A stretch of 64,000 nucleotides of DNA from Bacteroidia bacterium (GTDB taxonomy: Bacteria; Bacteroidota; Bacteroidia; J057). The first letter of the stretch is position 1; each line of letters opens with the position of its first letter. A model generated the notes under the pieces. That model was not told the DNA's origin and ran no database searches. It saw only the letters and a program-made list of their open reading frames with translations. The stretch lies in NCBI GenBank assembly GCA_033391075.1, contig JAWPMV010000001.1, positions 1,364,001-1,428,000 of the forward strand. The letters run 5' to 3'. A program made the translations under genes and the position numbers. Below are positions 49,331 to 50,827 of this stretch, piece by piece.

Positions 49331-49361
49331 TTGCAAAGCCATCTTAGATTCCCTACTTTTG
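49331..49361 (+). promoter_or_regulatory. Strong Bacteroidota-type promoter of the small basic protein gene
   Basis: TTGC at 49331, a 20-base spacer and TACTTTTG (49354-49361) match the TTG/TAnnTTTG consensus well. The start codon follows 28 bases later. Confidence 0.65.
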
Positions 49362-49389
49362 TATCCGTTTTCAGAAAAAGCTAGAAATC

Positions 49390-49560
49390 ATGGCAAAGAA
49401 ATTCACAAGAAAGAAACTGAGATTGCGTGCAAGAGCACAAGCTCGTCGCCACAACCTCAAAGTAGCTCCAACTGCTAAAGGTGTAAAAGAAACACTTGAG
49501 CAGAAAAACATGCCTGTGATTGCTTCTCTTGAAGCTAAAGTGAAAGCAGCACAAAGCTAA
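49390..49560 (+). CDS. Small highly basic protein (56 aa), unknown
   Basis: ATG 49390 to TAA 49558-49560 gives 56 residues starting MAKKFTRKKLRLRARAQARR. The first 35 residues hold most of the Lys/Arg residues, and the rest is an Ala/Lys/Glu helix. Codon choice is skewed to GCT, GCA, CGT and AAA, as in strongly expressed genes. A good promoter (49331) and a terminator (49595) frame it exactly. The composition resembles ribosomal or nucleic-acid-binding small proteins, but I cannot assign it to a known ribosomal protein. It is shorter than 60 codons and so easily missed by length filters. Confidence 0.75.
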   Translation: MAKKFTRKKLRLRARAQARRHNLKVAPTAKGVKETLEQKNMPVIASLEAKVKAAQS

Positions 49561-49594
49561 GAAACTCAGAGGCCATTGGCCCAGAAAATAAAAT

Positions 49595-49626
49595 AGCGAT
49601 AAGTCCTTTGGGGTTTATCGCTTTTT
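49595..49626. terminator. Terminator of the small basic protein gene
   Basis: A hairpin with arms AGCGATAA (49595-49602) and TTATCGCT (49615-49622), followed by TTTT, 34 bases after the stop. It may also serve the convergent CSD gene, as the left flank is A-rich. Confidence 0.8.
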
Positions 49627-49639
49627 CTGTTTGCATTGA

Positions 49640-50827
49640 TCAATGACTTTTGAGCCAGCCCCGATCAGGTGGTGCGATCAGGCGTGCATTCTGATACGCC
49701 CAGTCCAAAGGTAAGACCGTATTGGCTCGATAGATTTCATGTTCTTTTGCAACCACCAGAGCCAAATCCACTTTGCTTGGTATCTCTAAAGATAAAGGCA
49801 GTAACAACTGTATCTTTCCTTCATAGTATTGAGGTACAGCCGTTTTATAGTTTCTGTGAACCATACGCTCTGCCAGGTGGATCGCATTCCTCAAACGGGA
49901 AATCAGCTCTTCCTTACTGAGTTTTGAAAAGTGCTTGGGAAAACGCTCAGAGCGATCTTCAACTATATGCTCATAATCCGGAATCAACCTTCTACTGGTA
50001 TCGTAGATCAGGTCTTCGGGTGAGGCATAATAGTTAGCCAATTTGGGACTCCGTTTGAAATAGCTCATCAATCGATGACTTTCGCGTCCAAATTCTTTGA
50101 ACTGCCATTCCGGTTGGCGTATATAACTATTGGGTTGAGCCCTGCGGTGGTTCTCGCTGAAGTAAGCAAAAAGCTCCTCCTGTTTATCTGTAACCAGTCC
50201 TGTATTAAAGGCTGCGTAGGTATTATTCTCCTGATCTCGGGTATAGGAAATCTTGTCTTCTTGCTGAAGGCGTCTGAAAGTCTGTAAAAGATAATTGGAG
50301 AGGACCGTCAGGCGACCATTTTTCTTGCCATAGTCCCAATCTTCTTTTTGAGCCATTTGCGCCAATTTCAGGAGATGGCGTTCAAAATTCTGAAGGTTGG
50401 CAAATTTCTCAAGGGGATATCGGGTGTCACTGATGATCACCTCTTTGGCCTGCAATCCCCGCTCTGTTTCAAAAGGACTGAACTCTACCTCAAAGTCAAC
50501 TTCTATCTTTTTAAATCCTTGCCCTTTTACATCTGTATGGTGGAGGAAAAACCGCTTTCCACTCTTGCTTTCTTCAACATATCCATAGCCATTATGAAAC
50601 TCCATAATCTTGCCCGTCAGCCGCTCTGTAATGCGACTAACCAGCTCCGCTTTCGGGCCTTTACGCGTTTCTTTGATCTTGAATTGAACCAGTTCGTTTT
50701 CAACAAGGATTCTTGCCTCTCCCTGAACATCTGTAAAGTGTACGAATACCCCTTCTGGTTTTTCTGGTGTCTTGATCCTACCGAAACCGCGCTCGATATT
50801 GAAAAAACTCACAATTCCTATCTCCAT
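49640..50827 (-). CDS. Double cold-shock domain / DUF3825 protein
   Basis: A 395-residue cytoplasmic protein. Residues about 1-62 form a first cold-shock-like domain (GIVSFFNIERGFGRIKTPE … VFVHFTDV), and about 68-132 a second (GKIMEFHNGYGYVEE … FFLHHTDV). The C-terminal region (about 150-392) has the DUF3825 features: FNTGLVTD near 208, and YYEGKIQLLLPLSL followed by LDWAYQNARLIAPPD close to the end. Cold-shock domains bind single-stranded RNA or DNA; DUF3825 is often joined to nucleic-acid-binding domains and has no proven activity. I infer an RNA-related function. It is convergent with the small basic protein gene and shows no signal peptide. Confidence 0.8.
   Translation of the reverse strand: MEIGIVSFFNIERGFGRIKTPEKPEGVFVHFTDVQGEARILVENELVQFKIKETRKGPKAELVSRITERLTGKIMEFHNGYGYVEESKSGKRFFLHHTDVKGQGFKKIEVDFEVEFSPFETERGLQAKEVIISDTRYPLEKFANLQNFERHLLKLAQMAQKEDWDYGKKNGRLTVLSNYLLQTFRRLQQEDKISYTRDQENNTYAAFNTGLVTDKQEELFAYFSENHRRAQPNSYIRQPEWQFKEFGRESHRLMSYFKRSPKLANYYASPEDLIYDTSRRLIPDYEHIVEDRSERFPKHFSKLSKEELISRLRNAIHLAERMVHRNYKTAVPQYYEGKIQLLLPLSLEIPSKVDLALVVAKEHEIYRANTVLPLDWAYQNARLIAPPDRGWLKSH

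What the first reader, a model, noticed from the sequence alone, without database searches (positions are those of the whole stretch)
49331..49626. Strongly expressed 56-residue basic protein gene with private promoter and terminator
A consensus promoter, an ATG ORF with highly biased codons and a clean terminator form a compact gene below usual length cut-offs. Its first 35 residues are as basic as ribosomal proteins. It may be a lineage-specific ribosome- or nucleoid-associated protein.
Basis: partly seen in the sequence, partly recalled or inferred. Interest (0 to 1): 0.55.

Follow-up and report, generated by a model that had tools for sequence, protein, structure and literature searches.

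The report
Unnamed tiny basic Bacteroidota protein family
A real and apparently strongly expressed gene makes a 56-residue, very basic protein of a family with no name, kept in one copy by two little-studied orders of Bacteroidota bacteria, and it is most likely an extra small part of their ribosome, though that has not been shown.

Summary
Window 49331-49632 has a Bacteroidota promoter (TTG, 20-nt spacer, exact -7 box TACTTTTG), an inferred ~24-nt leader, a 56-codon ATG ORF (49390-49560) and an intrinsic terminator. Codon adaptation (0.815) exceeds all 25 S10/str-region genes tested; net charge is +13. The genome is very probably MAG Padam53 (order J057), matched by exact length and contig number. 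The window protein has no credible match in Pfam, NCBIfam, PHROGs or PDB, but it is not an orphan. Profile searches find one copy in 20 of 22 genomes of its order (18 of 18 good ones) and 12 of 13 (8 of 8 good ones) of a second Bacteroidia order, and no convincing copy elsewhere in the class and phylum samples. It evolves under purifying selection, with a -7 box upstream in 29 of 32 loci. Predicted fold: basic helix, Pro-rich linker, second helix. It is not bS21, bL38 (DUF4295) or bTHX. Best reading: a clade-specific ribosomal or ribosome-associated protein (inferred, 0.6), with a nucleoid protein the main rival. Novelty: a new family of a known kind. In passing: one genome of the second order shows mostly leaderless promoter spacing.

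The parts
49331..49361 (+). Promoter of Bacteroidota primary-sigma type: TTG (49331-49333), 20-nt spacer, -7 box TACTTTTG (49354-49361)
   Evidence: Sequence; box; TAnnTTTG within 80 nt upstream of 29 of 32 family loci against 4.7% of random windows; consensus from PMC6847099 (passages)
49366..49389 (+). Inferred 5' leader of about 24 nt, no Shine-Dalgarno, A at -3
   Evidence: The -7 box spans -12 to -5 from the start site in Flavobacterium (PMC6847099 and PMC9723704, passages); leader read. The start site itself is inferred
49390..49560 (+). CDS of a 56-aa basic protein (pI 11.8, net +13); predicted helix 7-25, linker, helices 36-39 and 41-55
   Evidence: family in two orders; codon adaptation; AlphaFold2 pLDDT 89, pTM 0.45
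49595..49632 (+). Intrinsic terminator: 12-bp stem, 4-nt loop, T-rich tract

Best explanation
The gene encodes a clade-specific structural protein of the ribosome, or a protein stably bound to it, in two Bacteroidia orders. Shown: a conserved, single-copy gene under purifying selection, with a housekeeping -7 box upstream in 29 of 32 loci and, in the window genome, ribosomal-protein-like codon use. Predicted: two helices joined by a Pro-rich linker with low global confidence (pTM 0.45). Inferred: the Arg/Lys-rich N-terminal helix lies in an rRNA groove and folds on it; the C-terminal helix (around Asn40, V/L-I/L and LE) docks on a neighbouring ribosomal protein or a second RNA site, so that the protein braces rRNA as bL38 and bS22 do at their own sites. 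In the window it is probably made from its own transcript and ends at its own terminator.
For: Single copy: 20 of 22 genomes of the order, 18 of 18 at >=90% completeness; 12 of 13, and 8 of 8, in the second order. This is comparable to two known ribosomal proteins in the same 22 genomes: bS21 19 of 22, bL38/DUF4295 18 of 22. Codon adaptation at or above that of ribosomal proteins. Charge density like the most basic ribosomal proteins. The 21 members measured have pI 10.5-12, with the charge in the first 35 residues. Purifying selection. -7 box in 29 of 32. Neighbouring genes mostly differ between the 10 genomes read, so the gene is kept for itself; in one genome of the second order a gltX-like ORF follows directly.
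Against: No physical evidence of ribosome binding. No homologue in any solved structure. No ribosomal-protein gene recognised among the neighbours in 10 neighbourhoods (only ORFs of 100 aa or more were listed, so small ribosomal proteins could be missed). Conservation is loose: only N40 and the start Met are invariant in A4, mean column identity 52% in A1 against 75% and 79% for bS21 and bL38, though those two alignments hold 7 rows picked by a motif and are biased upward. Small DNA-binding proteins can show the same charge, codon use and single copy. Codon use was tested in one genome only.
Confidence: 0.6

Rival explanations
1. A small nucleoid-associated or general DNA/RNA-coating protein: the basic helix binds nucleic acid unspecifically and the second helix makes dimers.
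For: Same charge pattern, high codon adaptation, single copy and own promoter; two-helix prediction.
Against: Only about 55 residues, length kept within 53-61 aa in the 32 members read. Charge sits mostly in the N-terminal part. No known DNA-binding family matched in Pfam or NCBIfam. Dimerisation was not tested.
Confidence: 0.17
2. A ribosome-linked factor that is not a structural subunit: hibernation, assembly or initiation factor that comes and goes.
For: Same features; Bacteroidota initiate without Shine-Dalgarno pairing (PMC6847099, abstract and passages), and one genome of the second order looks mostly leaderless, so extra initiation helpers are plausible.
Against: Ribosomal-protein-like codon adaptation points to high constitutive amounts. 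No match to a known family. In the window's order the -7 boxes leave ordinary leaders, so leaderless initiation cannot be the shared role.
Confidence: 0.15
3. A small regulator, toxin or phage-derived peptide.
For: Small size; no family name.
Against: One copy in all good genomes of two orders; no PHROG match for the window protein, and best E 0.005 for 1 of 23 members; no viral structure match below E 7; codon use of core genes. The PADLOC library was not searched.
Confidence: 0.04

Closest known systems
bL38 (DUF4295, PF14128), Bacteroidota 50S protein; solved chain 7jil_4 (Flavobacterium johnsoniae entry by recall)
   Same: About 50 aa, basic N-terminus, lineage-restricted, starts MAKK
   Different: No profile similarity (hhalign probability 0.8%, 1 aligned column); bL38 has beta strands (PMC10618245, passages) while this is predicted all-helical; the window genome has a separate bL38
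bS22 (Bacteroidota, mycobacteria, Borrelia)
   Same: Small, basic, helical, lineage-patchy ribosomal protein (PMC10618245, passages)
   Different: bS22 is described as a bent helix, a 93-nt gene in Borrelia, 61% Lys/Arg; this is 56 aa, 29% Lys/Arg, two helices with a linker
bS21 (PF01165)
   Same: Similar length, basic
   Different: No profile similarity; bS21 is present besides it, two genes in the window genome
bTHX (PF17070)
   Same: Small ribosomal protein, patchy in this order
   Different: 27-position model; found in 3 of 22 genomes of the order, all three of which also have this family

Membership tests
Ribosomal protein (general) | Present in washed ribosomal subunits in stoichiometric amount | not testable with these tools
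   No proteomics or structure for these orders at hand
Ribosomal protein (general) | Universal single copy within the clade | tested here: met
   18 of 18 and 8 of 8 good genomes, one match each
Ribosomal protein (general) | Codon use of ribosomal proteins | tested here: met
   0.815 against 0.643-0.793 for 25 reference genes; top 4.9% of reference-gene segments; window genome only
Ribosomal protein (general) | Lies with other translation genes (common, not required) | tested here: not met
   10 neighbourhoods, ORFs of 100 aa or more, named by eye; a translation gene is directly linked in one only (gltX-like, G495)
bL38 / DUF4295 | Match to the PF14128 profile or to bL38 sequences | tested here: not met
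   separate bL38 gene in G000
bS21 | Match to PF01165 or to the order's bS21 profile | tested here: not met
   separate bS21 genes
bTHX | Match to PF17070 | tested here: not met
   No Thx match among members; Thx and this family both occur in 3 genomes
bS22 | Match to COX24_C (PF08213) or to solved bS22 chains | tested here: inconclusive
   No match of the family to PF08213 or to PDB chains. PF08213 itself finds 0 of 22 genomes and also misses the Bacteroides control, so the model is weak for this phylum
Nucleoid-associated protein | Binds DNA in the cell | not testable with these tools
   No binding data; no known DNA-binding family matched

The most novel reading that the evidence does not exclude
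A previously unknown ribosomal protein, ancestral to a clade of two Bacteroidia orders, that sits where it affects start-site selection and allowed one of those orders to go over to mostly leaderless mRNAs.
Probability: 0.08. Interest if true: 0.75.

Novelty: new member of a known kind. Interest (0 to 1): 0.42.

Why it matters
Lineage-specific ribosomal proteins are easily overlooked because they are tiny and unnamed; Borrelia bL38 was identified only by mass spectrometry after its density was seen (PMC10618245, passages). This family is a concrete, testable candidate in two little-studied orders, and it shows that core gene sets of uncultured Bacteroidota still contain universal genes with no family model in the libraries searched.

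Tried and rejected
Rejected: bL38, bS21 and bTHX identity. The bS22 model was uninformative because its Bacteroides control also failed. Three of the 31 class hits at E<=0.01 were not counted as members: G263 (out of frame inside a long ORF that looks like a restriction helicase) and G487 (a 97-aa coiled-coil-like ORF), both read, and G378, set aside for its stops without further reading. The weak class hits (E 0.0015-0.05) and the non-G000 phylum hits (14 of 15, 9 of 10) are, by their table rows, partial matches, many of them broken by stops or inside long ORFs; of these only L032 was read, and it is not a plausible member. Fold searches with the window model: PDB 0 hits, VIA-align therefore had nothing to align, viral best E 7.3; the second-order model was not searched. 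My strict terminator script found 8 of 20 in the window's order and 0 of 12 in the second (random 1.6%). By eye it misses hairpins with imperfect stems or short T-runs (e.g. L009, L011), so 8 is a lower bound; a private terminator is not shown for the whole family, and f84 members run straight into a downstream ORF. dS was undefined or above 2 in many pairs, so dN/dS is rough. The class and phylum searches scored at most 16-17 first-look candidates (33) per genome, so very divergent copies could be missed; the 16 genomes of the window's order listed all hit. The class and phylum samples overlap and repeat between calls, so they are not independent draws. The codon reference left out uS5 and uL30 of the same stretch; one search adds them with the same result; infA and bL36 stayed out. 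Only 12 of the 24 bS21 and 12 of the 19 bL38 matches became loci; searches used 7 rows each. Taxonomy look-up of J057 found no name. Paper searches on Bacteroidota ribosomal and small proteins, listings only, showed nothing on this family, which has no name to search for; most subscription papers are not held.

Full report
Where it is. The window lies in a 9,489,248-base, 5-contig genome. [quoted passage not shown] The five named relatives found are Bacteroidetes/Bacteroidia MAGs, one of them 'J057'. I take the window to be Padam53 and its order to be J057.

The observation. TTG, a 20-nt spacer and TACTTTTG stand at 49331-49361. The -7 box is an exact match to the Bacteroidota consensus, which spans -12 to -5 of the start site in Flavobacterium; a -33 motif is weak in Flavobacterium (PMC6847099, PMC9723704, passages). 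This puts the start near 49366 and gives a leader of about 24 nt with A at -3 and no Shine-Dalgarno. The ORF is 49390-49560 and a strong terminator follows at 49595-49632. TAnnTTTG alone is common in the window (59 against 52 expected); the evidence is its place and its conservation. It lies within 80 nt upstream of 29 of 32 family loci against 4.7% of random windows, and a full TTG-N17-23-TAnnTTTG in 9 of 32 against 0.7%.

Is it a gene? Yes. Codon adaptation to 25 ribosomal-protein and EF-G genes is 0.815, above each of them left-one-out. With 23 of them it is 0.814, above 39 window genes (maximum 0.741) and 5000 of 5000 synonymous recodings, above 225 further genes of the genome (maximum 0.800), and reached by 1.3% of ordinary and 4.9% of reference 56-codon segments. 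Among relatives the third codon position changes most (878, 613 and 1793 differences at positions 1, 2 and 3 over pairs of at least 60% identity; pairs are not independent). dN/dS in the four pairs of the window's order with defined dS is 0.07 (L030/L031), 0.14 (L012/L013), 0.22 (L001/L002) and 0.37 (L028/L029), with dS near or at saturation; pairs of the second order with defined dS fall between 0.05 and 0.26.

The family. The single protein finds 15 of 60 relatives. The profile A1 finds 20 of 22 genomes of the order, each with one match, and 18 of 18 of those at least 90% complete; the two misses are 87% and 56% complete. Adding five divergent members (A3) reveals a second order within the class: families f84 and f106. 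With A4, 12 of 13 genomes of that order match, 8 of 8 good ones; the miss is 81% complete. In 395 genomes of the class, 31 match at E<=0.01, of which I accept 28 (16 of the window's order, 12 of the second); in 395 and 198 genomes of the phylum only the window genome is convincing. The window protein matches no family in Pfam, NCBIfam or PHROGs. Among members the best chance-level matches are E 0.019 in Pfam (A4), 0.16 in NCBIfam (A1) and 0.005 in PHROGs (A4), each for one member. PDB searches by sequence and profile give nothing below E 0.15 and by fold nothing.

The protein. The 32 members read are 53-61 aa; the 21 measured have pI 10.5-12, almost all net charge in the first 35 residues. The common plan is a start such as M-(A/S/P/G)-(K/R)-K, a basic helix, a Pro around position 27, a short linker, then a second helix with the invariant Asn40 and a V/L-I/L-x-x-L-E pattern in most rows. 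AlphaFold2 gives helix 7-25, linker, and helices 36-39 and 41-55 for the window protein (pLDDT 89, pTM 0.45) and helices 7-25 and 33-52 for a second-order member (pLDDT 84, pTM 0.40). High local and low global confidence suit a protein that takes its shape on a partner.

Neighbours (ORFs of 100 aa or more, named by eye). In ten neighbourhoods nothing is generally shared. G006 keeps the same kind of convergent cold-shock/DUF3825 gene as the window; the 11 f84 loci show the same kind of downstream gene, an oxidoreductase-like ORF close to the stop; G495 has a gltX-like ORF directly downstream. The gene is therefore kept for its own product.

What it is not. The window genome has bL38: its DUF4295 protein matches chain 7jil_4 '50S ribosomal protein L38' at 7e-8. 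It has two bS21 genes and a bL36-like ORF. Profile comparisons with bS21 and bL38 are null. bTHX occurs in 3 of 22 genomes, all of which have this family too.

Mechanism. Shown: conserved, single copy, selected, -7 box in place, ribosomal-protein-like codon use in the window genome. Inferred: the basic helix lies in an rRNA groove and the second helix on a neighbour, bracing a clade-specific site. I give this 0.6, a nucleoid protein 0.17, a transient ribosome factor 0.15. Nothing here shows binding to ribosomes.

Novelty. The family has no model in the libraries searched, and nothing on it showed in the paper listings; most subscription papers are not held. As a kind (small lineage-specific basic protein, probably ribosomal) it is known.

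Incidental. In the second order the -7 box starts 12 or 13 nt before the ATG in 11 of 12 loci, so the mRNA would start at or 1 nt before the AUG. This is not special to the gene: in 400 kb of G288, 32 of 258 genes have the box at -12/-13 of the first ATG against 1 of 264 in the window's genome, and 59 ATGs stand at that distance from a box in G288 (314 boxes in all) against 9 in G000 (309 boxes). Published figures for Bacteroidota are low: about 3.7% of 5' UTRs under 10 nt in B. thetaiotaomicron and 5.5% leaderless in F. psychrophilum (PMC7366714, PMC9723704, passages).

Noticed in passing
L146-L165 (G288) and L058-L069: A Bacteroidia order (families f84/f106; G288 is 2.3 Mb, G+C 0.52-0.55 in the four stretches measured) may make mostly leaderless mRNAs: upstream of 258 genes of G288, 70 have a TAnnTTTG box within 80 nt, and 56 box positions fall at -9 to -16 from the first ATG, peaking at -12, against a spread of -10 to -77 in the window genome. 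59 ATGs at leaderless spacing against 9 in G000. Genome-wide this was tested in one genome only. Worth its own study.
   Followed up: partly
L132 (G000:C1:4244500-4246500), ORF 730-1017: A second, divergent bS21 paralogue in the window genome, with lower codon adaptation (0.638) than the main bS21 (0.706); three other genomes of the order (G002, G004, G010) also have more than one bS21 match.
   Followed up: no
49640-50827 (-): Convergent neighbour: protein with cold-shock domain and DUF3825 matches; a similar gene lies convergent to the family member in G006 (by eye).
   Followed up: partly
L140 (G495): The family member is followed directly by a gltX-like (glutamyl-tRNA synthetase) ORF.
   Followed up: no
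Genomes of the window's order: bTHX is patchy: 3 of 22 genomes match PF17070.
   Followed up: no
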